A DNA stretch of 64,000 nucleotides from Bolinopsis microptera (lineage: Eukaryota > Ctenophora > Tentaculata > Lobata > Bolinopsidae), in the NCBI RefSeq assembly GCF_026151205.1, contig NC_087075.1, forward strand, positions 1,729,911 to 1,793,910, read 5' to 3'. Positions 1-58,758 of the stretch are shown piece after piece (within the stretch, counting starts at the first letter, position 1; every line of letters begins with the position of its first letter). The notes beneath the pieces were generated by a model. It saw only the letters and a program-made list of their open reading frames with translations. It was not told the DNA's origin and made no database searches. Both the position numbers and the translations under genes were made by a program.

Positions 1-193
1 TACTCACCACACTTGATGCCGAGAGCTGAGTCTGCTACACCCCCCCCCCCCCCCCCCAGAACTAAAACTCACCACACTTGATACCGAGAGTTTGCTACAA
101 CCCCCCACTCCCGCCCCAGAACTAAAACTCACCACACTTGATACCGAGAGTTTGCTACCCCCCCCCCCCTCCCGCCTCAGAACTAAAACTCAC
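1..193. repeat. Tandem copies of an exon-end plus donor, exon 38
   Basis: Three copies of a roughly 60-bp unit lie beside the true exon 38 donor. Each keeps the exon tail (TTGATGCCGAGAG or TTGATACCGAGAG on the plus strand) and the donor complement CTCACCACAC. They are separated by C-runs of 6 to 17 bases and short linker. Confidence 0.85.
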
Positions 194-352
194 CACACTT
201 GATGCCGAGAGGGTCCAGATCACCATCACAAGCGCAGCTCCTCCCGGTGGGGTTTACCAGGCACAGTCCCACACAATTCCCGTTATCTACACCACAGGGG
301 GACAAGGTACCCGGACACAACCAGGTGTTGGCACCAGGTGAAGGGTACGCTT
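194..352 (-). CDS. LRP-like gene, exon 38: EGF domain, last exon in window
   Basis: The acceptor is GTTTCAG and the donor G|GTGAGT. Phase 1 entry fits exon 37 across an intron that contains the CR1 element. It encodes a textbook [20 protein letters not shown], then [15 protein letters not shown] and a final IKCG. In LRPs this motif precedes or follows a propeller, so the gene should continue to the left. The last about 30 bases of the exon together with the donor recur three more times on the intron side (1-25, about 60-90 and about 120-150), separated by C-runs. Confidence 0.88.
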
Positions 353-3300
353 CTGAAACACAAGGATTTATATAGAGAAGATTTGTTCAAGGAGAAATGC
401 AACAACTTGAATTCCGTTACGTATCATCATACAGCATTTCTTACTAATAGGTAGTAGTATAATTGCTTTTGCATCGTTTTATTGAGCTCGCTTATCAGCA
501 AATTTATCTACTGAGCAAGCATTACCATCGGCTATCTCTGTGTGTATACATATTGTCTTGTATATACATTACTCCATGGTTACGAGTTCTGAGAATGATG
601 GCAGTGAAAAAGTTAAGATTATCATCGGGAAGCTTATTGATAAAGCTGAAATGCACGTTAGACCGGTTATTTCTGCTTTTGATAATTCTCAGTCGTGTGC
701 AGCTAACGCTAAGCGTTTTGATCGGTTTTCTCTCCCAATACTTGAAAATTGTGCGGAATTCTTAAGAATTTCTCTCGCTGACAAGGACAATTTCAAGATA
801 TTTACGAAGAAATCACTTATGGACCGTCTTTATTGTGGTTTCCAAGCTTTGATGCCCTCTAAATGTGCGGAATGTAGTGAGGACTATGTGATCGACCACG
901 AGCCAGATGATGCACCATGTTTCACATGTTTTCGGTGTTTTAAAGGCTCGCACAGCTGTGAACGGAACACGCTACTTCATCAGACCATATCAGCGATGAA
1001 CACTCCTTCCGGCTTTGTGTGGCTATGTGACACATGTTACAGTGCTGTTGATCCGATCGAGTCCAGAAAGACAAGATCACGACATACATCTGCTTCAGAT
1101 AATAATAGGAGTGGAGCTCAATCCAACAATTCTATTGGAGGAGATTTTTCTAATATCATCACCCCCTCTGGAGATGGGATGTCCTCTACCCACAACCCCC
1201 AACAGCAATTCGTGTCTTTCTCTGAAGAGAATTCAAATCAAGGAACTGAAAGAATCTGCCAGAAGTTCTTGAGCTGGAACTGTCCGCACGGAATTAGCGG
1301 AAAGAAGACAGTGAATGGAAATTGTTGTCCCCTCAAACATCCCCGAGTTTGTAATCAGTATAGAGTGTCTGGGTTTACTGGTAAGAAGGGATGTATAAAG
1401 GGTAAAAACTGTGCATTTTTTCACCCTGATATTTGCAAGGTAGCACTCGAAAGAGGATCGTGTCTCAACAAAGAATGTTCCAAGTTTCACCCCCTTTCTT
1501 GTAGAAAGAAGAAAAAGGAAGAACCCACTCGGGACAGGAATCAGAGATCCGGTATGCAGACAACCTCTAACTATAAGTCTAACTCTTCTTCTAGTTCGAG
1601 TGGTTTTTTAGAGCTACGAGACTTGGTCACGGGGATGGCGGCCAAGTTAGCAGCTCTAGAAAAGAAAATGGATCAAAGTGCCCCGTCCTCAGTGTGCCAC
1701 CCTCCAGCACAACCAGCGGGACAAATGTTCTACCCATCCCAAGCAGCTCCTGCGATGATGAGTTTAGGTGTTCCCAGGCTACCCCAGCACCAGACTCCCT
1801 TCTCTCTTCCCTCCTACTTCTAAACGCTAGGAGCTTAAACCCCTCCGCTAAGAGTGCCGGGAGGTGGAAGCTGCAGGACCTTATAGGTCACTTAGACGAG
1901 AAGCGACAGGACGGACACCTGTTTCCTTTTATCGCCATCACAGAATCCTGGCTGAAATCATACCACCATGATGCTCAGTTAGAGGTTCCAGGATACTCTC
2001 TATCTCGGTGTGATCGCAGTAAAAGGAGTGGTGGGGGAGTTATGCTGTACTCTCTATCTTCTATCCCAGTCTCCCTATCAGAGAGTTTTGATGATAGTGT
2101 TTGTCAGGGAATCATCAATCTCTACCCCTCTGCTAAACTCTGTGTTGCAGTGGCGTACAGACCTCCTGATGCAACGGCCGCCAGTTTCTCAAAACTATTG
2201 GACAGCTTTACTCATGTTATTGAGAACTGCGCTCCGAGCGACTACGACCTCTTCGTAACAGGGGACTTTAACTTACCACAGGTGGATTGGGAAACGCTCC
2301 AAATCCGAAGTGGGGGGACATCAGACTCCAATCTCTCCGCTCAGTGTTTGATACGGTTTATGTCCACTCACCTGCTCAGCCAGATGGTTACAACCCCGAC
2401 CAGAGGGAGCAATGTGCTGGATCTGATAATGTGCAACAACGATCGGCTGGTGTGCGATGTAAGCTGCGAAGCTACAGAAATGTCCGATCACAACATGGTT
2501 AATGCTCTCCTCTCTTTTAACCCTGCATTACTCGAGGAAGCTAAGCTCACGTATCTGGACGAAATGAACTTTCGGGCTCTAGATTTTAACCATACTGATT
2601 TCGAGGAACTTAACGAAGCTCTCAGTAGTGTGGACTGGAAACAGGTTCGAGGTTCCACTACCTTTGAAGAATTTCCGATAAATTTTACACGTAAAGTGCT
2701 AAACGTTTGTCTTGAAAATGTCCCAAGGAAACGACCTCCTAAAGGAAAACCGAATGTCTACAACTCGCTGAGAAGGAAGAAGTCCAGACTCAAGAATCGT
2801 CTTTCAGCGGCAGAGTGCAGCGGCGACCATGCTCGAATGAAACAGCTTGAAGACGAAATCGGATTAATCAGCTTTGAGATTAAGGAAGCTATAGTACACC
2901 ATTTTGATGAGGGCGAAAGGAGAGCGGTGAATAAGATAAAAGCTAATCCGAAATACTTTTATTCCTACGCGAAATCGTTCTCCAAAGTAAAGCAAAACAT
3001 CACAACTCTTCTTAATAGTGAAAATAAGCTTGACACAGAGAAGAAGGATCTTGCGAACATCCTCCAGACTCAGTTTTGCTCAGTCTATAGTGACCCCAAC
3101 TGCCCCTACAAATCCATGCCTGAATTTGCGGTGCCGCCCATTACTTGTCGAGATAAAGAACTTGTCCTCACTCTCGACCACGTAAAGGACGCTATATCGG
3201 AACTAAAGCTTGACTCTGCACCGGGACCCGATGGCATCCCCTCCATCCTGCTGAAAAGATGTACCTCTAGCTTAGCGGTCCCTATCTATCTCATCTGGAC

Positions 3301-6300
3301 AGAATCTATGTCGTCTGGCATCGTCCCAAGCTACTACAAGACCGGATATGTCACTCCTCTCTTCAAGAAAGGTAGCAGATGTGAAGCTGTAAACTATAGA
3401 CCTGTGACGCTGACTTCCCACGTAGTGAAGGTGTATGAAAGGGTCGTCAGAAAGCACATGACCCAGTACCTTGATTCTAATGATCTGTTATCGGACAAAC
3501 AGCACGGATTCAGGTCAAATAGAAGCTGTCTCACCCAAATGTTGGAGCACTTTGACGACATATACGAAGGTTTCACGAAAGGAAATGACACCGATTCAAT
3601 CTACCTCGACTTTGCAAAAGCTTTTGACAAAGTCGACTTGGATCTACTTCTTCTAAAGATGAAAAGATATGGATTCCAGGAGAAGCTCTTAAGATGGATT
3701 CAATCCTTCTTAACTGGTCGTGACCAAGTTGTTGTCGTGAACGGTGTGCATTCAGACAGCGCTAAGGTGTTAAGCGGGGTGCCTCAGGGCAGTGTTTTAG
3801 GTCCACTGTTCTTCCTGTTGTTCATCAACGACCTAGAGGACGTGGTTAAGCATTCTAGAGTGAGCTTCTTCGCAGACGATACTAGGGTTTCCAAGCAAAT
3901 TAGCTGCCTTGAAGACTGCCAACTTCTTCAGACTGATCTTTACAGCATTATAGATTGGTCCCTATGTAACAACATGAAGTTACACGAGCAGAAGTTCGAA
4001 CTCCTAAACCACCTACACAATAAGAGGAACTTATCAAGTGAACTTCCCTTCTACGTAGAAAGTCTCCTCTACAAGGTTTCTAGTGACGTCACTCTATATC
4101 CCGTAGAAAACGTTAGAGACCTTGGTGTAAAAGTGTCAAGCGATCTGAGCTGGTCTAAACACGTCGGGGATATGGTCACCAAAGCTAGAAGTAAACTGTC
4201 TTGGGTGTTCAGTGTGTTTAAGACACGGGATAAAGTGGTTATGATGACCCTCTACAAGTCTCTAGTCAGAAGCTTATTGGAGTACTGTTGTCCGCTGTGG
4301 GACCCAGTCAAGACGACAGAGATTCAGCTTTTGGAGGGGGTCCAGCGTACCTTTACAAGCCGCATTGGTGGTCTATACAGCTTAAACTACTGGGAGAGGC
4401 TAGCTCATTTGAAGTTAATGTCCCTGCAACGGAGAAGGGAGAGATACATCATCTTGATGATGTGGAAAACGTACCATAACGTTGTTCCAAATAGCTGTAG
4501 CATCGAGTTTGTGGAAACATCCAGATATGGCACTAAAGCAGTTGTTCCTTCTCTATCAAAGTCGAGTTCGATGAGAAACCAGACACTGTACGATAGCTCG
4601 TTCGCAGTAAAAGGATCCAAACTGTGGAATAAGGTGCCGAGTGAAGTGAAAGCCGAGAAAACGTTTGCCAGCTTCAAAGTCAGTTTGTCGAAGTTTCTTG
4701 CTTTGATACCGGATAACCCTCCGGTTTCCGGTTATACGTGCAGCTGGTCGAATTCCTTGGTAGACTACACGCCATCACGGTGGTCAGACATCTGATGACC
4801 CTTCCTGCTACGAGGATAAACCTTACCAAGTTACCAAGTTACCAAGTAAGTAATATTTCGGTAGAACTATTGCGGTAGAATAATTTAAACGCAACGAAAA
4901 ATATCTAACCAGCGTGATTAATAGTATGAGCTAGGGATCCAGTGAGTTCAATGAGCTTGTGTTCACCGGACACTTTTCCTTTCCCAATAGTTAGAGTTTC
5001 ACCTGGAGATGTTAAATATCAGGGTCTTGTAACTACTATATAATACACACACCAACAATACTTGTTGTTCACCCCCTAGTATAATACCTGTAAAATATCA
5101 GTTACTGTAAAATCAGCACAATATAGCGGCACAGATTTAGCTCAGCTCAGCACGATTAATAACACACTAGCGGCCCCCACCCCGCGCGGTGGGGTAGCAC
5201 CCCCACACCACTATTGTTTTGTTAACAACTAGTTTAATTATCTGCCACTGAGGCTGCTTTTGTAGCATGATTAGAGACATCTCGATTCTCGAACGCGATC
5301 AGCAATAGGTAATCAGTTTGGTAGTTAATTTTCATCAGGCGATAAGAAATCAGAAATCAAGGAGGAAGAATTGTGCTCGAAGAAAGCGATTTTAGGAGGA
5401 AGCTAACATGCAGAGATAAGAAGATATGGTTTGGTAATTATGTTATAACAGTACTTATCGTCGATTTAAGTAATTATTTATCATGGGGGGTCGGTATTAA
5501 CATTTTTTAGAACAAGAATCTTCTAATCTTATATCATTACTGATATAGTTTTTCTAAATTTCTGTTCTTTGGAGATAATCGTAGGTTATCTATTGCGGAC
5601 TGAATAATTAATGTTAGCTGGGTTTTTTAGCCAGAAGATTGGCTTTTCACAAATAAATCAATCGGCAAAGGTGTCGAATCATTCTTGTGTTTAGAGACAC
5701 GGCAGTAAAACACAAGGAAATGTTTTTTGAGGGCCTACTTTTCCCGTTGGGACACAGCGTCTGCAACCAGGATATCTCGTTAGCAACACTGGGAAACAAC
5801 TCTCTGCCCGATCGCAGTGTGAACTTGTATAGCTTCTTTTGGTCCCGCTCATATGTGACCCCGCTGCAGTCTGTGGACGTGTGAATATGTGTTAAAGTGG
5901 TGTTAGTTAGTGATGTTAGGAGACAAAAGATATTTAAGAAATTTCACAAAATTGTAGCAAAGAGTTGAAACCATTAACCAACTAAAACGCATCTCAAATA
6001 AGCTATAACTTCTTTACGAGACATTACCAGTATAATTAATTAATTAATTATAATTACCAGTATAATTAATTACCAGTATAATTAATGACCAGTATAATTA
6101 ATTACCTTTATTTATAATTATTAATTAATTAATTATAATTACCAGTATAATTAATTAATTAATTATAATTACCAGTATTTATAATTATTAATTAATTGAT
6201 TATAATTACCAGTATAAGTCTGACAAGCGAGTTTAGCAGCCTCTAGGTTCCTGTATCCCCTCCTTTTCCCTGTAGTGTATCCAGCAAGATAGGTGGTGCC

Positions 6301-36300: not shown

Positions 36301-39300
36301 TAGAGTCCTTCCTTCTAAAGCCTAATTATAGAGTCCTTCCTTCTAAAGCCTAGTTATAGAGTCTTTCCTTCTAGTCTAAAGCCTAATTATAGAGTCCTTC
36401 CTTCTAAAGCCTAGTTATAGAGTCCTTCCTTCTAAAGCCTAGTTATAGAGTCCTTCCTTCTAAAGCCTAATTATAGAGTCCTTCCTTCTAAAGCTTAATT
36501 ATAGAGTCCTCCCTTCTAGTCTAAAGCCTAGTTATAGAGTCCTTCCTTCTAAAGCCTAATTATAGAGTCCTTCCTTCTAAAGCCTAGTTATAGAGTCTTT
36601 CCTTCTAGTCTAAAGCCTAGTTATAGAGTCCTTCCTTCTAAAGCCTAATTATAGAGTCCTTCCTTCTAAAGCCTAGTTATAGAGTCTTTCCTTCTAGTCT
36701 AAAGCCTAGTTATACAGTCCTTCCTTCTAAAGCCTAATTATAGAGTCCTTCCTTCTAGTCTAAAGCCTAATTATAGAGTCTTTCCTTCTAGTCTAAAGCC
36801 TAATTATAGAGTCCTTCCTTCTAGTCTAAAGCCTAGTTATAGAGTCCTTCCTTCTAGTCTAAAGCCTAGTTATAGAGTCCTTCCTTCTAAAGCCTAATTA
36901 TAGAGTCCTTCCTTCTAAAGCCTAGTTATAGAGTCTTTCCTTCTAAATCCTAGTTATAGAGTCTTTCCTTCTAGTCTAAAGCCTAGTTATAGAGTCCTTC
37001 CTTCTAAAGCCTAGTTATAGAGTCCTTCCTTCTAAAGCCTAATTATAGAGTCTTTCCTTCTAGTCTAAAGCCTAGTTATAGAGTCCTTCCTTCTAGTCTA
37101 AAGCTTACTGACTGAATTGTGTTATACTGCTATAATGACCAAACTGCTATATATATTATATAATGACCAAACTTACATTCTGATTGTGATAGAATAAGTC
37201 CTAATTCCAAAAGACAAAACTATAGTTATGTCTGTGAATCTTATGTTGCACGTACAATACGTTTATCATGTTGCACGTACAATACGTTTCTCATGTTGCA
37301 CGTACAATACGTTTCTCATATTGCACTTACAATACGTTTCTTATGTTGCACGTGTAATACGTGTATCACATTGCACTTACAATACGTTTCTCATGTTGCA
37401 CGTGTAATACGTTTCTCATGTTGCACGTGTAATACGTTTATCATGTTGCACTTACAATACGTTTCTCATGTTGCACGTGTAATACGTGTATCATATTGCA
37501 CTTACCCGTTTATTGGGTCCACTTTGACACTCCTGGGACTGTCCCCGAATGTAGCGAGGGTCGCTATCTCACTTCCGTCGTTTGTGATAACTACCAGTGA
37601 GTTACTGATATCGTCAACAAAGTAGATGTACTTGCTTATCCAGTCTATACTCAAACCTGGGGTATTTAATATTTTATCACTATTCATTAAATAATTAATA
37701 TCATTAAATGAATTTCATTTCTCAGTGGTGGCTCCACTCAAACCTGGGGTATTTAATATTTTATCACTATTCATTAAATAATTAATATCATTAAATGAAT
37801 TTCATTTTGTTAACTCAAAAATGTTTTTCTAGCGAGTTATGTTGAATAAAACGTATGATAAATAACGAAAGAGGCAGTGTTAATGTATGCCATGGCAGTG
37901 TTAGCATAAAAGAAGTTTGAATCTTGAAACAAGAGCTTCTGAGTACTCCACGAAGAGTAGTAGTAGTAGTAAGTAGTAGCTAGTGCTGGTAATGTGTAGA
38001 GTAAAAGTAAGTGAGTAAAGAAAAAGGATTGTTTTCAAAGTAAAAGGATTGTTTTCAAAATATTACTGCTGTCTCACGAGTCATTATTAGGACTCACTCC
38101 AACGTATATTCAATACATTTTTCGGTACACTCATCATGGTCACACATTAAAACTTATGATTCCATCGTTTAACTCTAAGTTTGGTGAGCGAAGCTTCTCA
38201 GAGGTGGCTCCAAAGATCTACAACCGTCTGCCTACTACCATCACATCAGCTGAATCTCTGGAATCCTTTAAAGCATTTCTAAAAACTTTCTTATTCAAAT
38301 TGTCTCAGCATGAACTTTGTCACTGACCGATTTTGGCCTATATTAGTTCTTCTTTAGTGTTAGTTCTTTAATTTTACACTTCACTCTTTGATTTTAGTAT
38401 GATCGATATATTTTCAAGTATATGATAAGATGATAGCAGTCCTAACATTTATCATGATAGTGTCTGGGATGACTAGATGAAACACTGAGTTTAAGTGTAT
38501 CTTAATAGTGGTGTTCTTAAACTTCAATTTATTATTATTATAAAGTAGGAAAATGTAGGTTAAAACTAACCTGAGGGTTGTCCAACATTTTCTCTGACTA
38601 TAACAGGACTCGCTCCTGCTTCAACCTTCACTATTTGCTGAAATTATATTTATGCTTCACTATTTGCTGAAATAATATTTATCCGTTAAAATAACCTAAG
38701 CAATAAAATATGATATATTTTTCTTCAAATTGCAAACTTTAAATAAGTTTAAGTAATCATAATTTTAGTCCTTAACTTAATATAACTTAATATAAAGATT
38801 AATATAAATATTTCCTCATTTACCACATTGACTAACATGGTGTTGTGTCAGTCCCTAGGTGGATAGCCAGCAAAGAGGTAAGAATGTAAGGAATGTAACA
38901 ACAATGTGAATAATGTGAATTATGATCCCACACGCCACCATCTGTTTAACAGAACAAATTCAGGCTCACTACACATGGTATCTAACAGATGTTTATGTAA
39001 AATAGCACAACAAAGTATACATAATTAGTTTATAAATAGTATATCATATTATATAATATGTAGAAATTGATTGATAGATTGGTGGAGCACCACCCGGACA
39101 ATTAGGAGGTACTCGGCACTAAAATGTTAAATTGCAATCAATTTTAAGGTATACCCACATTATATGTTAATATAATAACACTACCAGGAAATCAAAATAA
39201 TTCTTATCTCTCACATTAATTTAGAACAGTGACACAGGGTCTGAAAGGCACAGATACTATATCTAGTATATAGTTGGTTAGGCAGACTATCTAGTATATG

Positions 39301-42300
39301 TTATATAGTTGGTTAGGAAGACTATCTAGTATGTTATATAGTTGGTTAGGCAGACTATCTAACTTATTTTATATAGTTGGTTAGGCAGTCTATCTAACTT
39401 ATGTTATATAGTTGGTTAGGCAGACTATTTACTTATTTTATATAGTTGGTTAGGCAGACTATCTACTTACAGAATATCTGATGTCACTCCAGTACACAGT
39501 GTTGTATATAGTTGGTTAGGCAGACTATTTACTTACAGAATATCTGATGTCACTCCAGTACACAGTGTCAGTCAACTGATCGTAGTCTATACCAACTCCT
39601 ACTTGCATCAGATCGTCTCCTGGTTATGTGAACTTCAGTTAGATTATAAAAGTAAGGGGTAATGTGAACTTCAGTTAGATTATAAAAGTAAGGGGTAATG
39701 TGAACTTCAGTTAGATTATAAAAGTAAGGGGTAATGTGAACTTCAGTTAGATTATAAAAGACTCTATCACACGTAAGGGGAAAGATTGTTAATATTGATT
39801 ACTGACTATACACTACCTTACAAGACTTTTTTATAACGTACGAAATGCGACGGTTTTCCCGAAATTTCGCCATATTTTCGGACCGCCAAAATTTCGGTCG
39901 TCGTAATAGAATCCGTCGCATTATTTTTAGCTTATTCCAATAATTGTGGCTTCATCGATTAATTTTGTTCTTAAAAAGTTGGTGATATGATGGTGGGACA
40001 AATAAACACAATATTCCATGATGAATTTAATGTCAAGTAATACGTTTTAAATTTACAATAAATTACATTTATGTGCTAACATAAACGTCTTATAAGAGAC
40101 TAAGTCAAGATAAACAATTTAATACCAAACTCAATAAGTGAAACTGAAAGAGTCGAGCCGGACCCCTATTAGAGGAAGATGAAGAAATCAAGTTTCATTT
40201 TGTTTCAACATGATTTTACCGATTTTTAGAAAATTTTGAATTTCCTTTGTGTCAGAAAACAAAATGATGAAAAATACCCTTATTTTCTGTGACGTCCGAA
40301 ATGTGACGGTTTTTGTTCAATTTCGCCATATTTTCGGACCGCCAAAATTTCGGTCGTCGCAAATTGGTCCGCCACAAAAATGTCTTGTAAGGTAGTAGAA
40401 AATACAACACGCGGTATTCCTTAATTTCAGTTTAAACATCTCTTTAATTAACAATTATTTCTCATCCACTGACTTTACTTCTACATTTCACACCGTTTAC
40501 TATTGCAATCTCCTCTAGTGCTCCTTTATTCAGATATTTTGGCACTTTGCCAATGTTTGCGATAATGACCTCATAAGCGCAAATCCAGGCCATGTGTATA
40601 ATAAAACATGGCCTCGATACATTGTTTATTGTATATTGTATACATTGTTTATTGTATAGGATGAACAATACCGCCCTTTAACTCGTGTATCGTGTATTTT
40701 TAAATTCTGTTTTGCATACTTTGTTTACGGACTGTCGGGACTGTAAGCTACGTAGCGTAACAGTAGGGGATTTTTAGAAGGCGGTTTATTCATGTTTACA
40801 TTACTGCGGTTTAAGTGCACGTTTATCTTTTTGAAAACGCCATACGTACGCGATATCAAGTCACGCATTGAATACTAAACAAAAGGATAACAATAGAAAT
40901 GAACAGCTGTAATATCACTAATGATTAATAATTAATAATCTCACCAAGTCCTAGAACAGGATAACAATAGAAATGAACAGCTGTAATATCACTAATAATT
41001 AATAATTAATTAACTCACCAAGTCCTAACACAGACTCCTGTTGAGACTCCAAGTCCACAATAACAACACTCAGCTGGTCAGTATAGAGCAGAGTCTGTGT
41101 ACCCTTAGTGCACGTGCCAGTCTCCACATCCACATGGTTACCTTCCTGACACAGACACACTGGACTTGTGGTGCCGTTGTTAGAGCTGGTCACACAGAGG
41201 AACTCACAGGTTGTGCTGTCACATGGGTTAGGTTGCAGGGGGGTCAGCTGGTAACTGAATACTGATACTGCTGGGATGTCTTCTAGCTGGAGGGAATATT
41301 TGATTTTGTTTATCTGATTTTATTACGGGTTATTTGCTGATATATTAGATCATACAGTAGTGATCTTAGTTGAAGTTGGCCCCTGGTATGTGATTTAGAA
41401 GAAACTGGATGATGTATTGAACTGGACGTAAAGAAGTTGAGAGAGGTAAACTGACAATATCAAAGAGGCTTTAACTTAATTAATTAACTTAATTAATAAT
41501 TTAACTTAATTAATAATTTAACTTAATTAATAATTTAGCTTAATTAATAATTTAATATTATTGAGAATGATATGCTTTTAAAAATAAAAACAAATTCACA
41601 AGAATATTTTATCCGATTAACATAATTTAAAAGACAATTATTTTAGTAAAAGCTCGCAATGAATAATGATCTTTTAAACTACCTCCAAGCCCATGAACTG
41701 TAGAGGCTGTTGGATTATCATTCCAGAGCTCTCAAATCGTGTTATCAGTACTCCATTCTCCTGCAGAAAATAAAAGTTGTTAGTTAAACTTAATTTCAAA
41801 GCTGTAGAATTTAGCATAAAGTATTCAGATATAAAGAAATGTATATCATGGATGTAAATTCCAGTATTTCTGCCTTTCACACCAGAGGTGGCCTTGAAAC
41901 CCTATATGTAGTGACAATTAATAACAGTCCTGACACTGTTATTAAGAACTAAAACATAAAACGAAGGTGGTGTTAGTTCAGGTGGTGTTAGTTCAGGTGG
42001 TGTTAGTTCAGGTGGTGTTAGTTCAGGTGGTGTTAGTTCAGGTGGTGTTAGTTCAGGTAGTGTTAGTTCTCTAATTCTCACCTCTCCCCCAGAAGCAACA
42101 TGAGCAGTAACAACTCCTCCATCAGGTAAACAAGCCAGGTAAGCCAGCTTGGTTACAGGTGGTCGTGATCCTGGTACTTGCATCTTACTTCCCACACAGT
42201 CCTCTGGTCTGTGGTATTTACTGGGTCATCTTATTGTTGAGCTACAGTTCATGAAATTTAATGACGGCTAGATGTACAACTATTATACAATGTACAATGT

Positions 42301-44244
42301 ACAACTATGTACATCTATTATACAATGTACTATGTACTAATGTACAACTATCGAATAATATGTACATTTTTGTACAATCAAAACTTGGAAGTATTAAATG
42401 TAACACTGTATGTGATAGTTGTATGATAATGTACCCGCAGAATGGAGATATTGTCAGAATGGTATCAGGAGCGTTTGAATCTTCTCCCAGCGTCATAACA
42501 ACCAGGTTACCAGTTGGGTTGAGCGATATCCCTGTAGAAAAGTTATACACAATGTATAATGTATAATGCATAATGTATAATGTATAATGCATAATGTATA
42601 GTTGAGCGATAACCGTGTATAAAAGTTATTGGAAAACCGAAAACTCTTACACAAACTTGGACATTTCATTGAGCAATACATTTTATTAGATTTATCGGTA
42701 TCAATCATAGTTTGTGATTCCTGGGATTCTTTGCACAGACTGATACAACTGAAGAATAAAAAAAAGAAACTAACCAGACGGAAAGCTCAAGCCTGCAGCA
42801 ACAACTGTAATTCCCGTACCATCTAGTCCAGCGAACATAACATTACCGCTGTAGGGCTCCGTCCAGAAGAACCCTCCCCTGGTTTGATCCACCACCAGAT
42901 CAAACGGGAGGTTGTCAGGAGGACGGACTAGAAGTGTCCTTTTATTCGTACCACTGAGGATTGTTGTTATGTTAGCATCAACTCCTTCGTCTTTTATCTA
43001 CAATTATAAACACAAAAGTGGCTTGTAAGTAGTAGATAGTAACTAATAAATCAAGTTTATAGAATTCAGAAAAGATTATCTTCTTATCCAGTAAGATATT
43101 TGTTGATGCAACTCACTCGGTGACGTATATGGTGGATATAGAGTGATCTGTCCAGTAAATGTTTCCCGTGGAGACGTCTATATCAATACCAGTGGGGTGG
43201 TGTATTGAGTTGGTGGAAACAAGTTCTTTTACAGGTCCTATTAGAAGATTTTCATTAGTTCTCAAATTATCCTCCAGTAGACCACATGTAAGGAGGTAAT
43301 AACACAATTAATTCCAAGCTACAAAATATTGTAAAAAACGAAACTTACGGTCGTCATCAGAGCTGGTGAGCACTTTATAAATAGAGTCCTCAGTCGACAG
43401 ATAAAGTAAGTTTGTCTTTGCGTTACTGGCCAACGAGATAAAACTTGTTCCCTCAAACTGAAAATATGGTTTCCTTTAATTTCGTTTTGATTTCAGGGCA
43501 ACATCAGATGACCTGGTTCTGTAATTCCGATGCCACAAATATTGGAACTATAGATAGAGTTCAGCAATTATGTACATACCTTTAAGGAACTGAGGGTGCT
43601 GTCAATGCTTTCTGTGATAGGGAACTGGTATATTGATCCTTTCAGAGCTATGCTTAATTTCTCATCTGAAATATTCACTTATTTGTAAAATGGAAAATGT
43701 GTTATGGCTTTAGAATCATCAAGACACATAGCAGTCACACACAGTGCTAATCAGACTGATACCACGACATTATTTAGAGAATTAGGCATTATATGAGAAC
43801 ACGATTATATTGTAATAAACCAATACATTTGTGACTTCATATTCACAAATATGGATGAGGACTCAATGAACATGCATTAATTTTTGTGAATAATTCTTGT
43901 GGGAATAATTTGCAGTTCAAAACTTTACAGAATAATTGTAACACATACCACATGAAGCAAAACATGAGGTTGTTACACGTTCTGAGCATCTCAAGCAGCC
44001 GTCTTGCAATCTCACAATATCTGTTAAAGTTGAAATCATCAAATAGGATCAGAAATATTTTAGACTAGATAGGAACTGAAACATAAAATAGAAGCAGGCA
44101 GCATTTTGTGTTTCAGATATATTTCTGATCACTAAGGATCCGTGATTGGATAATGGTGTTATAAAAATATGGAATGTCAAATCTTTAAATTTAAAAGCAC
44201 TCACCAAAGAGCTGAAATAGCAGAACAAAGACTGCTATGTTCAT
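194..44244 (-). CDS. LRP-like receptor, YWTD propellers plus EGF, 38 exons, 3' end off window
   Basis: A large modular extracellular receptor, split into 38 exons read right to left; each block is given separately below. Exons were found by reading both strands for YWTD-type (YWTD, YWSD, FWSD, YFTD) and EGF cysteine patterns between GT and AG sites, then testing phase. All junctions keep frame except exon 4 to 5. The visible coding sequence is about 4,526 nt (about 1,508 aa). Order: signal peptide, propeller 1, EGF, propeller 2, EGF x2, propeller 3, EGF x2, propeller 4, unknown region, EGF. Members of this family are single-pass membrane receptors for secreted ligands. The absence of N-terminal LDL-A repeats resembles LRP5/6, but LDL-A, transmembrane and tail exons would lie beyond base 1, so the subfamily is unresolved. 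Introns are filled with minisatellites and transposons. Confidence 0.9.
576..1823 (+). CDS. LINE ORF1, CCCH zinc-finger RNA-binding protein
   Basis: The protein begins [14 protein letters not shown] at 576; an in-frame ATG at 540 is also possible. An N-terminal half has a Cys-rich, PHD-like patch ([28 protein letters not shown]; roughly residues 93-165). Three CCCH-like units follow at about residues 230-315: CPHG with LKHPRVC, then [17 protein letters not shown], then [16 protein letters not shown] basic stretch and a Ser-rich, coiled-coil-like tail come next. This CCCH arrangement is known from CR1-family ORF1 proteins of invertebrates, where it is thought to coat element RNA. It overlaps ORF2 by 130 bp in another frame. 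Confidence 0.85.
   Translation: MVTSSENDGSEKVKIIIGKLIDKAEMHVRPVISAFDNSQSCAANAKRFDRFSLPILENCAEFLRISLADKDNFKIFTKKSLMDRLYCGFQALMPSKCAECSEDYVIDHEPDDAPCFTCFRCFKGSHSCERNTLLHQTISAMNTPSGFVWLCDTCYSAVDPIESRKTRSRHTSASDNNRSGAQSNNSIGGDFSNIITPSGDGMSSTHNPQQQFVSFSEENSNQGTERICQKFLSWNCPHGISGKKTVNGNCCPLKHPRVCNQYRVSGFTGKKGCIKGKNCAFFHPDICKVALERGSCLNKECSKFHPLSCRKKKKEEPTRDRNQRSGMQTTSNYKSNSSSSSSGFLELRDLVTGMAAKLAALEKKMDQSAPSSVCHPPAQPAGQMFYPSQAAPAMMSLGVPRLPQHQTPFSLPSYF
1694..4795 (+). CDS. LINE ORF2, endonuclease and reverse transcriptase
   Basis: It is 1033 aa without an internal stop. The N-terminal AP-type endonuclease shows NARSL (about residue 43), [23 protein letters not shown] (about 190) and MSDHNM. The reverse transcriptase shows APGPDGIPS (about 508), [33 protein letters not shown] (about 636), [10 protein letters not shown] (about 694) and the catalytic FFADDT (about 725). 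The C-terminal part has the usual CR1 features ([24 protein letters not shown]). The enzyme nicks DNA and copies the element RNA by target-primed reverse transcription. The start is uncertain because ORF2 of such elements may be reached by reinitiation; 1694 is the first ATG. Confidence 0.92.
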   Translation: MPPSSTTSGTNVLPIPSSSCDDEFRCSQATPAPDSLLSSLLLLNARSLNPSAKSAGRWKLQDLIGHLDEKRQDGHLFPFIAITESWLKSYHHDAQLEVPGYSLSRCDRSKRSGGGVMLYSLSSIPVSLSESFDDSVCQGIINLYPSAKLCVAVAYRPPDATAASFSKLLDSFTHVIENCAPSDYDLFVTGDFNLPQVDWETLQIRSGGTSDSNLSAQCLIRFMSTHLLSQMVTTPTRGSNVLDLIMCNNDRLVCDVSCEATEMSDHNMVNALLSFNPALLEEAKLTYLDEMNFRALDFNHTDFEELNEALSSVDWKQVRGSTTFEEFPINFTRKVLNVCLENVPRKRPPKGKPNVYNSLRRKKSRLKNRLSAAECSGDHARMKQLEDEIGLISFEIKEAIVHHFDEGERRAVNKIKANPKYFYSYAKSFSKVKQNITTLLNSENKLDTEKKDLANILQTQFCSVYSDPNCPYKSMPEFAVPPITCRDKELVLTLDHVKDAISELKLDSAPGPDGIPSILLKRCTSSLAVPIYLIWTESMSSGIVPSYYKTGYVTPLFKKGSRCEAVNYRPVTLTSHVVKVYERVVRKHMTQYLDSNDLLSDKQHGFRSNRSCLTQMLEHFDDIYEGFTKGNDTDSIYLDFAKAFDKVDLDLLLLKMKRYGFQEKLLRWIQSFLTGRDQVVVVNGVHSDSAKVLSGVPQGSVLGPLFFLLFINDLEDVVKHSRVSFFADDTRVSKQISCLEDCQLLQTDLYSIIDWSLCNNMKLHEQKFELLNHLHNKRNLSSELPFYVESLLYKVSSDVTLYPVENVRDLGVKVSSDLSWSKHVGDMVTKARSKLSWVFSVFKTRDKVVMMTLYKSLVRSLLEYCCPLWDPVKTTEIQLLEGVQRTFTSRIGGLYSLNYWERLAHLKLMSLQRRRERYIILMMWKTYHNVVPNSCSIEFVETSRYGTKAVVPSLSKSSSMRNQTLYDSSFAVKGSKLWNKVPSEVKAEKTFASFKVSLSKFLALIPDNPPVSGYTCSWSNSLVDYTPSRWSDI
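4849..5738. other. Intron sequence between LINE and exon 37
   Basis: AT-rich intron DNA with a short GC-rich patch (about 5169-5200, CCCCACC and its inverted copy GGTGGGG). No ORF, RNA gene or array is recognised. Confidence 0.5.
5739..9141 (-). CDS. LRP-like gene, exons 35-37: region of unknown fold
   Basis: Exons: 35, 9032-9141; 36, 8000-8159; 37, 5739-5870. They are supported by in-phase junctions (1, 0, 1, 1) linking exon 34 to exon 38 and by GC-richer, stop-free sequence. The encoded stretch of about 134 aa follows propeller 4. It begins [18 protein letters not shown], passes through [18 protein letters not shown] and [14 protein letters not shown], and ends [10 protein letters not shown]. 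It has only three cysteines and no YWTD motif, so it is neither a normal EGF nor an obvious propeller. It could be a degenerate fifth propeller or an inserted domain; I do not recognise it. Exon 36's acceptor is present in five copies (8159-8790), but only the innermost gives an open frame. Confidence 0.75.
6033..6220. repeat. AT-rich TTAATTAA / ACCAGTATAAT repeats
   Basis: Irregular tandem runs of TTAATTAATTA with ACCAGTATAATTA, including inverted copies. Low-complexity intron DNA between exons 37 and 36. Confidence 0.8.
6293..6985. repeat. Long-unit tandem array, about 83 bp x 8
   Basis: Eight copies of a unit running from TGGTGCCGTGCCGCGAGTAA through CTGTGAAGTTACTTTAGC to GCTACTATGGTTACTG. 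The third and fourth copies have altered linkers (CAGCAAGATA, TTAATCG). Near-identity between copies suggests recent expansion. It lies 420 bp from exon 37 and does not abut it. Confidence 0.92.
8160..8790. repeat. Hexamer array and duplicated exon 36 acceptor
   Basis: The acceptor end of exon 36 (plus strand CTGCTCTACATTGTCCTGGG) recurs near 8199, 8259 and 8295, with a partial copy at about 8784. The copies are separated by GTTAGT hexamer runs that expand to about 450 bp (8325-8780). Only the copy at 8159 is followed by the open exon frame. Confidence 0.88.
8943..9066. repeat. Duplicated exon 35 end with donor
   Basis: GATGTTACACTCACAGATGT with the following exon bases (to GCGGGGGACC) occurs at 8943-8990 and again, with slight changes, at 9018-9066. 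The second is the real exon 35 end. Both copies have the GTGAGT donor on the minus strand. Confidence 0.88.
9146..9985. repeat. 11-bp minisatellite TTTACTATTAG at exon 35 acceptor
   Basis: About 75 copies of TTTACTATTAG (variant TTTACTGTTAG) start five bases from the exon 35 acceptor (CTCTGCAG). Some copies carry single substitutions such as TTTATTATTAG. Confidence 0.93.
10084..11240. repeat. 30-bp minisatellite starting at exon 34 donor
   Basis: About 38 copies of a 30-bp unit, on the plus strand AACCTGGTGACTGTTACCAC plus GACAACAACT. Read on the gene strand each unit contains CACCAG|GTTAGTTGTTGT, matching the true exon 34 donor CCAG|GTTAGTTGTTGT. The unit length is a multiple of three, which explains long spurious ORFs on both strands. 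Confidence 0.95.
11238..14503 (-). CDS. LRP-like gene, exons 27-34: end of EGF pair and fourth propeller
   Basis: Exons: 27, 14334-14503 (nearest donor); 28, 13743-13835; 29, 13322-13427; 30, 12923-13025; 31, 12153-12265; 32, 11756-11862; 33, 11510-11587; 34, 11238-11331. Phases all agree. Motifs: [81 protein letters not shown] and [13 protein letters not shown], closing with [18 protein letters not shown]. Exon 27 can use any of six donors spaced 60 bp apart (exon-final bases 14334, 14274, 14214, 14154, 14094, 14034). Each adds 20 residues in frame. The 14274 copy has GTGAGTAAG; the others have GTTAGTAAG. Confidence 0.9.
11482..11520. repeat. Duplicated exon 33 donor
   Basis: AAATTACCTTTTTT occurs twice about 21 bp apart, so AAAAAAG|GTAATTT is present twice on the gene strand at the end of exon 33. 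Confidence 0.7.
12010..12165. repeat. Three copies of exon 31 end with donor
   Basis: A unit of about 50-58 bp, AATGCACGTGCAAAACTGG then TGTGACACTAACCAAGT, occurs three times. The exon tail GTCCATT is included in the last two. All three have the GTTAGTGTC donor on the gene strand. Confidence 0.9.
12277..12810. repeat. 11-bp minisatellite ACACAGTTAAC at exon 31 acceptor
   Basis: About 48 copies of ACACAGTTAAC, with ACACAGATAAC and ACATACAGTTA variants, start a few bases from the exon 31 acceptor (plus CTGGTCACAGGTAACACAGA). Confidence 0.93.
13150..13321. repeat. ATTAGTA-type low-complexity repeat at exon 29 donor
   Basis: Irregular repeats of AATATTAGTA and AATTATTAGT run up to the exon 29 donor, whose sequence on the plus strand is itself ATTAGTAC. 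Confidence 0.8.
13427..13620. repeat. Three 62-bp copies of exon 29 acceptor
   Basis: A 62-bp unit beginning CTAAAAGAGAAGCATTATTA and ending TTTAATTATTCGAG occurs three times in direct contact with exon 29. Each copy has the polypyrimidine acceptor GCTTCTCTTTTAG on the gene strand; only the innermost joins exon 29. Confidence 0.93.
13836..13932. repeat. Partial copy of exon 28 start
   Basis: AAAGTCTATATCCAGACT and the following TTACTCCACTTG at 13901-13930 repeat the first part of exon 28 (13803-13830), separated by ATTATTAGTAAATATT repeats. Confidence 0.85.
13979..14390. repeat. 60-bp tandem array containing exon 27 end and donor
   Basis: Seven near-identical copies of a 60-bp unit (ATGTCCACAACTTTTCTATG, then GAGTGGAATAGTATCGAGTG, then ATATCTTACTAACCGGTGAA). 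On the gene strand the unit encodes [20 protein letters not shown] and holds the donor CCG|GTTAGTAAG. Six copies keep the donor; one has GTGAGTAAG. The last copy lacks it. Confidence 0.97.
14691..14867 (-). CDS. LRP-like gene, exon 26: paired EGF domains
   Basis: The acceptor is CCCTCAG and the donor GTTAGT; entry and exit are both phase 1. The exon encodes one complete EGF module ([18 protein letters not shown], then CACPQNIQ, ending GRDC). It also encodes the first half of another ([17 protein letters not shown]), which is finished in exon 27 ([10 protein letters not shown], then SLCV). The CGxxNGxCSHFC and [12 protein letters not shown] patterns are diagnostic of LRP EGF modules. The acceptor side carries a duplicated copy of its upstream sequence (about 14880-14965) interrupted by a G-run. 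Confidence 0.93.
14868..14970. repeat. Duplication at exon 26 acceptor
   Basis: TTATTATTAGTGAGCTAAA followed by GGAGGAGAT and GGCAATTCT occurs twice about 56 bp apart, separated by a run of ten G. Confidence 0.8.
15246..15345. repeat. 19-bp tandem repeat x5
   Basis: Five copies of CTATTTGGTAGTAACACAA (one with CTATTCGG) in the intron between exons 25 and 26. The surrounding stretch from 14970 to 16100 has no recognised gene. Confidence 0.9.
16107..19423. repeat. 26-bp minisatellite, about 128 copies, from exon 25 donor
   Basis: A 3.3-kb array of GGAACTAACCAATCAGAGCA plus ATCTGT. On the gene strand each unit carries ATTG|GTTAGTTCC, the same string as the exon 25 donor where the array begins. 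Common variants are CCGATCAG and CTGCGG; blocks of variants recur in the same order, pointing to higher-order duplication. Confidence 0.97.
19424..22487 (-). CDS. LRP-like gene, exons 19-25: third propeller
   Basis: Exons: 19, 22360-22487; 20, 22036-22204; 21, 21790-21883; 22, 21308-21440; 23, 20030-20154; 24, 19830-19901; 25, 19424-19536. All phases join. Motifs: [77 protein letters not shown] and [13 protein letters not shown]. Exon 25 ends with the usual propeller exit (QPFDIHWYS). The compact exons here are the best-preserved YWTD repeats in the gene. Exon 25's donor, ATTG|GTTAGTT, is the first edge of a 3.3-kb array of a 26-bp unit carrying the same string. Confidence 0.92.
20165..20325. 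repeat. About 80-bp duplication near exon 23 acceptor
   Basis: ATCACACTTACTCTAGTAGC, a G-run, GTTGAGTACTAGAGTAATAA and GATAGTGGTA form a unit present twice, with a third start at 20307, next to exon 23. Confidence 0.85.
20366..20800. repeat. 22-bp minisatellite AAATTTACCAAAATAAGACC
   Basis: About 19 copies of CAAATTTACCAAAA followed by TAAGACCT, CACGACCT or TATGACCT. It decays toward 20870. It lies within the intron between exons 22 and 23 and does not touch an exon. Confidence 0.93.
21441..21560. repeat. GTGTTAGTGAG repeats and copied exon 22 start
   Basis: Eleven- to twelve-base units of GAGGTGTTAGT lie against exon 22. They are followed at about 21525 by a second copy of the exon start and acceptor (GTGAAGTACATCTTACTGAG). 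Confidence 0.88.
22879..24167 (-). CDS. LRP-like gene, exons 17-18: two EGF domains
   Basis: Exon 17 (24036-24167) encodes one EGF module ([17 protein letters not shown], then [10 protein letters not shown], ending RNTCG). Exon 18 (22879-22998) encodes a second ([18 protein letters not shown], then CLCDDFYEK, ending GKCV). Each exon is one domain with phase 1 at both ends, the usual arrangement for shuffled EGF modules. Both donors are GTTAGT. The intron between them (23.0-24.0 kb) also has an unassigned plus-strand ORF at 23509-23766. Tandem EGFs between propellers are seen in several LRPs; a single EGF per propeller is the LRP5/6 rule, so this is a departure from it. Confidence 0.9.
24168..24232. 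repeat. TAAATATTATG repeat at exon 17 acceptor
   Basis: Five copies of an 11-bp unit repeat the acceptor sequence ATTTACAT against exon 17. Confidence 0.8.
25135..39619 (-). CDS. LRP-like gene, exons 10-16: second propeller
   Basis: Exons: 10, 39537-39619; 11, 38571-38637; 12, 37506-37656; 13, 32935-33023; 14, 32408-32493; 15, 30937-31050; 16, 25135-25233. Phases join without a break. Blade motifs, in order: [55 protein letters not shown] and [13 protein letters not shown]; exon 16 is the closing strand before the EGF pair. The block covers about 14.5 kb for 689 coding bases. The intron between exons 15 and 16 (5.7 kb) and that between 12 and 13 (4.5 kb) hold arrays and a foldback element. 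Donors include GTTAGT (exon 11) and GTTACT (exon 14). Confidence 0.88.
25605..26234. repeat. 11-bp minisatellite TTGATCACAGG
   Basis: About 57 copies of TTGATCACAGG, with TTGATCACAGC and TTGATCAAAGG variants. Each unit contains the palindrome TGATCA. Confidence 0.95.
28303..28425. repeat. CCCCCTG repeat array 1
   Basis: Tandem CCCCTG and CCCCCCTG units, strongly C-rich on the plus strand. Confidence 0.9.
28571..28670. repeat. CCCCCTGT / CCCCCTG repeat array 2
   Basis: A second C-rich array about 150 bp from the first, beginning CCCCTGTC and passing into CCCCTGCC. Confidence 0.9.
30048..30247. repeat. 10-bp minisatellite TAACTACTGG
   Basis: About 20 copies of GGTAACTACT with a few GTGACTACT and GTACCTACT variants. 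Confidence 0.93.
31225..32407. repeat. 10-bp repeat with higher-order spacer, from exon 14 donor
   Basis: Blocks of GTAACCTGTA x2 to x8 are separated by ATAACAACTAAAA. On the gene strand the units read CTACAG|GTTACT, the same as the exon 14 donor ACAG|GTTACTTTAG that abuts the array. Each block therefore has both a donor-like GTTACT and an acceptor-like TACAG. Confidence 0.95.
33024..33230. repeat. GTAACGGTAACTTTAGGTAA repeat near exon 13 acceptor
   Basis: Five copies of AACGGTAACTTT(A/T)GGTAACGCC with AATA linkers start about 30 bp from exon 13. Confidence 0.88.
33555..34294. mobile_element. TTAA-flanked foldback element (long palindrome)
   Basis: Arms 33555-33911 and 33932-34294 are inverted copies, about 98 percent alike by eye (single mismatches and one indel), with a 20-bp loop. 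Outer ends read TTAAGGGGGCCGGG and CCCGGCCCCCTTAA. TTAA is the target of piggyBac-type elements, so this may be a non-autonomous relative. The G/C runs next to the ends differ in length. There is no ORF. It lies in the intron between exons 12 and 13. Confidence 0.85.
34296..35036. other. Intron sequence, no recognised gene
   Basis: AT-rich intron DNA between the foldback element and the 28-bp array. A 124-codon minus-strand ORF (34521-34895) shows no recognisable domain and is not in phase with flanking LRP exons. Confidence 0.4.
35037..37105. repeat. 28- to 33-bp minisatellite, about 70 copies
   Basis: The unit is AGAGTCCTTCCTTCTAAAGC plus CTAGTTAT or CTAATTAT. A longer form inserts AGTCT before AAAGCC. 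Short and long forms alternate in recurring blocks. It is in the intron between exons 12 and 13 and touches neither exon. Confidence 0.95.
37238..37505. repeat. 24-bp minisatellite at exon 12 donor
   Basis: About 11 copies of ATGTTGCACGTACAATACGT or ATGTTGCACTTACAATACGT with TTCTC. The exon 12 donor (plus CTTACCCG) is preceded by the same TTGCACTTAC. Several units thus carry GTAAGTGCAA on the gene strand. Confidence 0.93.
37650..37823. repeat. 87-bp duplication of exon 12 start and acceptor
   Basis: CTCAAACCTGGGGTATTTAA and the following about 55 bases occur from 37650 and again from 37737. The exon start plus the CCCAG acceptor is in both copies. Confidence 0.95.
38094..38540 (+). mobile_element. 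CR1-type LINE, 3' end fragment
   Basis: A 5'-truncated LINE tail. The plus-strand frame ending at TGA 38324-38326 encodes [34 protein letters not shown] and [14 protein letters not shown], the conserved C-terminus of CR1/L2 reverse transcriptases (GERSFS.AAP..WN.LP). The 3' UTR runs to an ATT microsatellite (about 38528-38540). It is a different family from the full-length copy at 440-4848. Confidence 0.85.
39264..39536. repeat. TTATATAGTTGGTTAGGCAG repeat and copied exon 10 end
   Basis: About seven copies of a 30- to 37-bp unit containing TATAGTTGGTTAGGCAGACT. At 39470-39507 it includes a partial copy of exon 10 (ACTTACAGAATATCTGATGT and CACTCCAGTACACAGTG) with its donor. Confidence 0.93.
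39620..39775. repeat. 36-bp repeat x4 at exon 10 acceptor
   Basis: Four copies of TGTGAACTTCAGTTAGATTA plus TAAAAGTAAGGGGTAA lie directly against exon 10. Confidence 0.93.
39816..40392. mobile_element. TA-flanked MITE with internal direct repeats
   Basis: Ends are CCTTACAAGAC and GTCTTGTAAGG, both flanked by TA (39814-39815 and 40393-40394), as for Tc1/mariner-like elements. Near both ends the same block occurs in the same orientation (ATATTTTCGGACCGCCAAAA then TTTCGGTCGTCG; about 39870-39905 and 40328-40362). There is no transposase ORF. It is 577 bp, in the intron between exons 9 and 10. Confidence 0.75.
40883..41032. repeat. 75-bp duplication of exon 9 end and donor
   Basis: AGGATAACAATAGAAATGAA through CTCACCAAGTCCTA occurs at 40883-40957 and 40958-41032. 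Each has the exon 9 tail and a GTGAG donor on the gene strand. Confidence 0.95.
41019..41286 (-). CDS. LRP-like gene, exon 9: EGF domain 1 and start of propeller 2
   Basis: The exon runs from acceptor CCCTCCAG to donor GTGAGT. It encodes an LRP-type EGF module, [16 protein letters not shown] followed by VCLCQEG and TGTCTKG, giving six cysteines. It then enters the next propeller with [18 protein letters not shown]. Entry is phase 0 and exit phase 1, matching both neighbours. In LRPs an EGF module packs against the base of each propeller. The donor side carries a 75-bp tandem duplication (40883-40957 and 40958-41032) that includes the last bases of the exon and a second copy of the splice donor. 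Confidence 0.9.
41683..44244 (-). CDS. LRP-like gene, exons 1-8: signal peptide and first propeller
   Basis: Exons: 1, 44205-44244; 2, 43580-43665; 3, 43349-43457; 4, 43117-43237; 5, 42775-42997; 6, 42435-42531; 7, 42082-42208; 8, 41683-41760. Exon 1 starts [14 protein letters not shown], a hydrophobic signal peptide; it sits just after TTTTTAG, so a 5' UTR intron ending at the ATG is possible. Blades are recognised by [14 protein letters not shown] (exon 3), [10 protein letters not shown] (exon 4) and [20 protein letters not shown] (exon 5). Exons 6-8 are more diverged and include a Cys pair (PFCGPEDC). All phases agree except exon 4 to 5, where the GTGAGT donor leaves phase 2 while the exon 5 reading frame needs phase 0 or 1. 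That boundary is one base off and may be a sequence error or an unusual site. Confidence 0.85.
41950..42078. repeat. 15-bp minisatellite next to exon 7 donor
   Basis: Seven copies of GGTGGTGTTAGTTCA start 10 to 15 bp beyond exon 7. The frame runs on past the GTGAGA donor, so intron retention would add a PELTP-type repeat. Confidence 0.93.
42262..42370. repeat. TATACAATGTACAACTA repeats near exon 6 donor
   Basis: Irregular tandem copies of ATGTACAACTATTATACA. The exon 6 donor is GTACATTATC, the same motif on the gene strand. Confidence 0.8.
42532..42630. repeat. ATAATGTATAATGC repeats and copied exon 6 acceptor
   Basis: GTTGAGCGATATCCCTGTAG with AAAAGTTATA (exon 6 start plus acceptor) recurs at about 42601 as GTTGAGCGATAACCGTGTAT with AAAAGTTATT. 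A TAATGTATAATGCA array fills the gap. Confidence 0.88.
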
Positions 44245-53117: not shown

Positions 53118-53455
53118 GATAAAGTATTTGCGAAAATGGACAACTATTGCATGAGCGACAAGAACGGAAATGAGCTATACATTTTGTGATTAATCCCATT
53201 TCTTATATCTTGAGGGGACATGGAGCAGTTTTGCTACTCAATTTAAAAATTCAGAGGTTCCCTAGAGGCCTTCCTACAATTGAGTCCAGTTCTCACGGTT
53301 TCTCTTTCTTTCATAATTACCATTATCCTATTTGATCTTCCACTTGCACTTGAGGTTATCCATTTCTTATATCTTAAGGGGACATGGAGTAATTTTGATA
53401 CTCAATTTACAGATTTAGAGTTAGCCTTTTTGTAGGCTGGTCAAAAGGAAAAGGC

Positions 53456-58352: not shown

Positions 58353-58387
<35 letters not shown>

Positions 58388-58723: not shown

Positions 58724-58758
<35 letters not shown>

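What the first reader, a model, noticed from the sequence alone, without database searches (positions are those of the whole stretch)
1..42630. Minisatellites of the LRP-like gene are seeded at splice junctions
Across the gene, at least 20 exon edges touch a tandem repeat, and in many the repeat unit holds the splice site plus exon bases: exons 6, 9, 10, 12, 22, 27, 28, 29 (acceptor only), 31, 33, 34, 35, 36 and 38. Arrays that happen to lie near exons would not contain exon sequence. This suggests that local duplication starts at or near exon-intron borders and then expands into minisatellites, so that much of the intron mass may descend from splice sites. I know of introners and of tandem exon duplication creating introns, but not of this pattern described as a genome habit.
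Basis: partly seen in the sequence, partly recalled or inferred. Interest (0 to 1): 0.9.

Follow-up and report, generated by a model that had tools for sequence, protein, structure and literature searches.

The report
Splice-site minisatellites in an LRP gene
In one receptor gene of what is probably a comb jelly, many short tandem repeats were made by copying the edge of an exon together with its splice site, a kind of repeat already known in lancelets as 'mirages'.

Summary
An LRP4-like gene lies on the minus strand; 37 modelled exons (43425 down to 194) join into one open frame of 1464 codons. Of 74 exon edges, 24 have a tandem array over them or within 20 bases. In 12, TRF finds the array crossing the edge by at least 4 exon bases (9 donors, 3 acceptors). 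A 13th (exon 33 donor) is a duplication TRF missed. Eight of the 13 edges lie where homologues align, and most of those homologues give a gap-free alignment across them.

Array ends pile up at exon edges in this gene (23 against 6.3-13.5 expected). But inner-intron points lie in a repeat more often (148 of 400) than junctions do (16 of 74). The excess of edge-crossing arrays vanishes if arrays may enter exons by 60 bases. Controls from the same genome: 0 of 86 edges in five myosin genes, 1 of 136 in two random 100-kb blocks. Edge-crossing arrays hold 38% of array bases and 15% of intron bases here. So it is dense in this gene and sporadic in the controls, not a shown genome-wide habit.

The kind is known: amphioxus 'mirages' (PMC3087553). 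Species inferred: Bolinopsis-like ctenophore.

The parts
194..43425 (-). LRP4-like gene as modelled: 37 exons; continues past base 1 of the window
   Evidence: gene finder; 1464 codons, no stop; P0001 LRP4 Ciona E 2.8e-201; junctions against 15 of the 20 homologues
40884..41027 (-). array 74 bp x1.9 over exon 7 donor (exon end 41019), 9 exon bases
   Evidence: a gap-free alignment in 11 of 14 proteins, 22 of 40 aligned pieces
39439..39568 (-). array 66 bp x2.0 over exon 8 donor (39537), 32 exon bases (codes ...YWSDIRYS)
   Evidence: 12 of 15 proteins, 31 of 45 pieces
38626..38682 (-). array 29 bp x2.0 over exon 9 acceptor (38637), 12 exon bases
   Evidence: same junction as exon 8 donor: 12 of 15 proteins, 31 of 45 pieces
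37649..37807 (-). array 87 bp x1.8, 100% matches, over exon 10 acceptor (37656), 8 exon bases
   Evidence: 15 of 15 proteins, 39 of 47 pieces
30868..30948 (-). array 33 bp x2.5 over exon 13 donor (30937), 12 exon bases
   Evidence: 15 of 15 proteins, 35 of 47 pieces
16107..19427 (-). array 26 bp x128 starting at exon 23 donor (19424), 4 exon bases (ATTG|GTTAGT)
   Evidence: 11 of 15 proteins, 21 of 48 pieces
13976..14387 (-). array 60 bp x6.9 over exon 25 donor (14334): 54 exon bases + GTTAGT
   Evidence: 11 of 15 proteins, 14 of 46 pieces
12013..12162 (-). array 54 bp x3 over exon 29 donor (12153), 10 exon bases (NGL of WPNGL)
   Evidence: 15 of 15 proteins, 46 of 48 pieces
10085..11241 (-). 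array 30 bp x39 starting at exon 32 donor (11238), 4 exon bases (CCAG|GTTAGT)
   Evidence: only 1 protein covers this junction
8935..9066 (-). duplication at 75 bp of exon 33 end + donor (9032); not reported by TRF; lower limit read by eye from the printed alignment
   Evidence: no homologue covers this junction
8142..8294 (-). array 60 bp x2.7 over exon 34 acceptor (8159), 18 exon bases
   Evidence: no homologue covers this junction
6023..6217 (-). array 67/30 bp over exon 35 donor (6210), 8 exon bases
   Evidence: no homologue covers this junction
2..211 (-). array 60 bp x3.4 over exon 37 donor (194), 18 exon bases
   Evidence: last exon in the window, junction not tested
55675..55790 (-). 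array 58 bp x2.0 (100%) over the donor (exon end 55780) of a signal-peptide-like exon MLFFVSLVALLLTATRPESIDP (ATG 55845), 11 exon bases; perhaps exon 1 of the same gene
   Evidence: TRF; read by eye, not found by the gene finder and not tested by homology

Best explanation
These are mirages: short local tandem duplications that straddle an exon edge and sometimes expand into minisatellites. Steps shown: the unit carries exon codons plus the splice site; TRF copies are 83-100% alike; with splicing at the exon-proximal site the gene stays open over 37 exons, and at the testable edges most homologues align without an insertion. Steps inferred: the duplications arise by ordinary slippage or end joining in a gene unusually prone to it. 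Those that cross an edge survive because splicing keeps using the exon-proximal copy, so the other copies become intron; unequal exchange then amplifies some. Donors outnumber acceptors (10 to 3 with exon 33), as expected if an extra upstream acceptor is harder to ignore than an extra downstream donor. A modest further preference for junctions (pile-up of array ends) is seen here and in myosin genes; its cause is unknown.
For: 13 duplicated edges with 9-10 of 10 matching splice-site copies; 8 of these 13 edges lie under homologues, with a gap-free alignment in 11 of 14 to 15 of 15 proteins; use of the next copy would bring a stop or a frame shift in 11 of 13, so the exon-proximal site is likely the main one; in this gene junctions are repeated less than inner intron (16 of 74 against 148 of 400) but more than exon interior (1 of 58), as a tolerance model predicts; amphioxus precedent, where RT-PCR suggests that regular splicing is not disturbed (PMC3087553, section 16 read).
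Against: Array ends pile up within 20 bases of junctions beyond placement within introns at every tolerance tried (23 against 6.3, 8.1, 9.5, 13.5), and in myosin genes 7 against 1.61 (P 0.0004); tolerance alone does not give that. Long-unit low-copy arrays are biased to junctions. In one myosin gene (M4) 126 of 400 inner-intron points but 0 of 16 junctions lie in repeats, so tolerance is not equal between genes. By aligned piece, gap-free support is weak at some edges (14 of 46 at exon 25, 21 of 48 at exon 23). No RNA data were available; the 10:3 donor bias is small.
Confidence: 0.6

Rival explanations
1. Junction seeding: exon-intron borders are true hot spots where duplications begin (for example transcription-linked breaks), so minisatellites are born there and feed intron growth.
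For: Pile-up of array ends at junctions (myosins); 9 of 19 long-unit low-copy arrays cross junctions against 3 of 32 others; tandem triplets of the donor word AGGTTAGT number 2343 in the genome against 293 for a dinucleotide-matched word, 94 for the reversed word and 15 for the matched word reversed; six-base donor words are mildly in excess in array units of the random blocks (6 against 2.8 and 9 against 4.8 of 124, z 2.2 and 2.4).
Against: Counted as loci on contig C1 the words give 8 against 4 and 0 (P 0.051 against the matched word; one C1 locus is shared by both words), so the large match counts come partly from big arrays; 0 of 86 myosin and 1 of 136 random edges are crossed; no excess of crossing arrays if 60 exon bases may be entered; the seven-base donor words show no clear excess in random-block units (0 against 0.4 and 2 against 1.0).
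Confidence: 0.27
2. Selected spare splice sites: copies are kept because they serve as alternative or backup splice sites.
For: Distance to the next copy is a multiple of 3 in 8 of 13; the insert at exons 25 and 33 is open and in frame.
Against: In 11 of 13 the insert has a stop or shifts the frame; most homologues align without an insertion at the 8 testable edges; 8 of 13 is weak evidence.
Confidence: 0.06
3. Intron gain by tandem duplication (Rogers model): the introns themselves were made by duplicating exon sequence with AG/GT.
For: Reported for a potato gene and some Drosophila introns (titles and abstract starts in the listing); proposed for amphioxus mirages.
Against: Where both ends of an intron are crossed (exons 8-9 and 33-34) the two units differ in length and, by eye, in sequence; elsewhere only one end is crossed.
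Confidence: 0.03
4. Misplaced exon edges: exons were modelled into nearby arrays.
For: It happened once (exon 21); 5 of 13 edges lie where at most one homologue aligns or no test was made.
Against: 8 of 13 edges have gap-free alignments in most homologues covering them; at exon 29 the copied bases encode residues shared with LRP2.
Confidence: 0.04

Closest known systems
Amphioxus 'mirages' (Adh3, globins BflGb6 and BflGb9; PMC3087553 section 16 read; Canestro 2002 cited there, not held)
   Same: Minisatellite-like tandem duplications spanning exon-intron borders, 5' or 3' border, units of 10-72 or about 150 bp, many copies with AG/GT signals, regular splicing reported as not disturbed
   Different: Here probably a ctenophore, 13 of 74 edges in one gene; length polymorphism and RNA not tested
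Intron gain by tandem genomic duplication (Rogers model; potato RdRp PMC4974935, title and abstract start in listing only)
   Same: Small tandem duplication carrying splice signals
   Different: Here existing introns gain repeats, mostly at one end; no new intron is shown
Introners / introner-like elements (PMC4457414, title and abstract start in listing only)
   Same: Intron sequence carrying splice sites and copied
   Different: Units differ from array to array by eye; no dispersed family seen

Membership tests
mirages | tandem repeat spans an exon-intron border, unit has exon and intron bases | tested here: met
   12 edges by TRF, 13 with exon 33
mirages | both 5' and 3' borders can be affected | tested here: met
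   10 donors, 3 acceptors
mirages | regular splicing not disturbed | tested here: inconclusive
   no RNA; gap-free alignment in 11 of 14 to 15 of 15 proteins at 8 of 13 edges
mirages | length instability between alleles or in soma | not testable with these tools
   a second copy was sought for window 13322-14900 only, none found
mirages | found in cephalochordates (where described so far) | tested here: inconclusive
   assembly of 264.65 Mb in 232 contigs, large contigs seen up to number C13, fits B. microptera 265 Mb, 13 chromosomes; that paper lists 346 scaffolds; species not proven
introners | one sequence family copied to many loci | tested here: not met
   crossing units differ by eye (units printed); window 13322-14900 with the exon 25 array has one full match in the genome, the other 17 being short pieces of 49-60 bases; the other arrays were not searched this way
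intron gain by tandem duplication | the same duplicate at both ends of the intron | tested here: not met
   units differ in the two introns crossed at both ends, other introns crossed at one end

The most novel reading that the evidence does not exclude
In this animal splice junctions are preferred birth sites of tandem duplications, so splice sites continually seed minisatellites that enlarge introns, most strongly in certain genes such as this LRP gene.
Probability: 0.25. Interest if true: 0.75.

Novelty: new member of a known kind. Interest (0 to 1): 0.45.

Why it matters
If the species is a ctenophore, mirages are not a lancelet peculiarity and are likely a general by-product of tandem duplication at splice junctions. 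One gene with 13 cases gives a test bed for how splicing copes with duplicated splice sites, and for whether such duplications feed intron growth or new introns.

Tried and rejected
Exon 21 acceptor over array 20185-20315: dropped, homology moves the acceptor to 20154; still contain it. Motif enrichment in TRF units: seven-base donor words (GGTTAGT, GGTGAGT, GGTAAGT) in sense are in excess in the LRP gene (5 of 51 against 0.4) and in myosins (2 of 41 against 0.2), not in random blocks (0 of 124 against 0.4; other strand 2 against 1.0); six-base donor words mildly in random blocks (z 2.2 and 2.4); acceptor words show nothing, branch-point words z up to 2.1. Multiple-of-3 unit length: 8 of 12 TRF units before the exon 33 case (P 0.019), 8 of 13 by distance to the next copy; not pursued. 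Second haplotype: none found for the one part searched. Random-block exons: my gene finder at the cut-off used gave 80 exons against 40 from reversed sequence, so perhaps half of the 68 kept exons (after dropping terminal, low-complexity and array-rich ones) are false; 1 of 136 is then likely too low a rate. The myosin set (43 exons overlapping PF00063 hits by at least 40 bases) is the better control, though its exact edges come from the gene finder. Only 5 myosin genes were taken from the 73 hits; L010 and L011 (a sixth, with its hits) were held but not analysed, nor were L001-L008; kinesin hits could not be fetched. L009 (10 kb) gave no exon over the cut-off and was left out. Locus counts rest on the first 100 rows printed (C1 complete, C2 begun) and all rows. 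One search used 15 of the 20 homologues; a protein counts as gap-free if at least one of its aligned pieces is. Literature; in their listings I saw no paper on such repeats in ctenophores (passages of the Hormiphora and Mnemiopsis genome papers seen; the one paper not read); only this library was searched.

Full report
What it is. The window lies in an assembly of 264.65 Mb in 232 contigs, at C4:1729911-1793910. Large contigs are seen up to number C13. This fits Bolinopsis microptera (265 Mb, 13 chromosomes; PMC11797021 Table 1, passage seen), although that paper lists 346 scaffolds; the species is inferred. On the minus strand a gene finder written here, trained on the gene's own conserved exons, gives 37 exons from 43425 to 194 after curation by hand. 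With one edge corrected by homology they join into 1464 codons without a stop. The protein matches LRP4 of animals (best Ciona, E 2.8e-201, 27% identity); its first 1255 residues match LRP2, LRP4 and LRP6 in the PDB.

Observation. TRF arrays scoring 50 or more cross 12 of the 74 exon edges by 4-54 exon bases and come within 20 bases of 12 more. A further edge (exon 33 donor) carries a 75-base duplication that TRF does not list. At all 13 a neighbouring copy repeats the splice site in 9 or 10 of 10 bases. Of these 13, eight lie where homologues align: at them 11 of 14 to 15 of 15 proteins have at least one alignment without a gap within 5-6 residues (by aligned piece 14 of 46 to 46 of 48; 15 of the 20 homologues used). 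The other five have no or one homologue, or were not tested. The best case is exon 25: seven copies of 54 exon bases plus GTTAGT. An independent 16-mer test finds a nearby copy at 16 of 74 edges, 1 of 58 exon-interior controls and 148 of 400 inner-intron points. So the pattern is real, and junctions are repeated far more than exons but less than plain intron.

Is it more than chance? Fifty arrays in 36 introns were placed at random within their introns 2000 times. Ends at or over junctions (20 bases or closer): 23 observed, 6.3 expected if arrays must stay in the intron, 8.1, 9.5 and 13.5 if they may enter exons by 10, 20 or 60 bases; no placement reached 23. Crossing by 4 or more bases: 11 observed (the exon 37 donor lies outside the introns placed), 1.9, 4.05 and 9.74 expected at 10, 20 and 60 bases; the last is no excess (P 0.38). 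Long-unit (25 or more), low-copy (under 4) arrays cross junctions in 9 of 19 cases, the others in 3 of 32 (P 0.005). Whether crossing is in excess thus depends on how far arrays may enter exons; the pile-up of ends does not.

Is it a genome habit? In five myosin genes (43 exons anchored by PF00063 matches) 0 of 86 edges are crossed, although array ends do pile up near junctions (7 against 1.61, P 0.0004). In one of them (M4) 126 of 400 inner-intron points but 0 of 16 junctions lie in repeats. In two random 100-kb blocks 1 of 136 edges is crossed: an exon with the look of an SLC27 gene (name by eye, not tested), 35 bp x 24 copies with 25 exon bases. These random exons are partly false (80 found against 40 in reversed sequence). 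The LRP gene differs from both together (12 of 74 against 1 of 222, P 3e-7) and per array from the myosins (11 of 50 against 0 of 37, P 0.002). The LRP introns are also richer in arrays (42% against 5-34%, TRF score 30 or more). Genome-wide, three donor words AGGTTAGT in tandem occur 2343 times against 293 for a dinucleotide-matched word, 94 for the reversed word and 15 for the matched word reversed, but on contig C1 that is 8 loci against 4 and 0 (P 0.051 against the matched word). Array units of the random blocks show a mild excess of six-base donor words and none of seven-base ones. This is suggestive only.

Mechanism. That copying ran from exon to intron is clearest at exon 29, where the copied bases encode NGL of a WPNGL stretch shared with LRP2, and likely at exon 8 (YWSD, a form of the YWTD motif; recalled). 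Use of the next copy would add a stop or shift the frame in 11 of 13 cases, so the exon-proximal site probably dominates, and the extra copies behave as intron. I judge tolerance of ordinary tandem duplications in an array-prone gene most likely (0.6), with true seeding at junctions the main rival (0.27). Edge-crossing arrays hold 5959 of 15730 array bases and 15% of 38838 intron bases; two arrays of 3.3 and 1.2 kb make up most of it.

What is known. Ebner et al. 2010 (PMC3087553; [quoted passage not shown] This is the same kind of thing in what is probably another phylum, and dense in one gene.

Noticed in passing
window 486-4795 (+): LINE-type element with open frames (endonuclease and reverse transcriptase domains in 1595-4792, none in 486-1820) lying antisense in the intron between exons 36 and 37 of the LRP gene
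   Followed up: partly
window 52122-53174 (-): Open frame of 350 aa with a rhodopsin-family 7TM domain (PF00001), possibly nested upstream of or within the LRP gene
   Followed up: partly
window 55675-55845 (-): Signal-peptide-like first exon whose donor is duplicated in a perfect 58 bp x2 repeat; may be exon 1 of the LRP gene, with an intron of about 12 kb
   Followed up: partly
L035 (C3:9154012-9154485): Two neighbouring myosin exons that match the same part of the head domain (positions 102-167), perhaps mutually exclusive exons
   Followed up: no
L012-L021 joined, base 63471 (C3 block, + strand): SLC27-like exon (name by eye) whose donor and last 25 bases are repeated about 24 times in a 35 bp array
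   Followed up: partly
G000:C2:494000-509000: Arrays holding most of the first 100 listed AGTTAGGT triplets
   Followed up: no
window 58354-58386 and 58725-58758: Runs of 33 G and 34 C about 340 bases apart, with TTAGTCCCCA repeats between them
   Followed up: no
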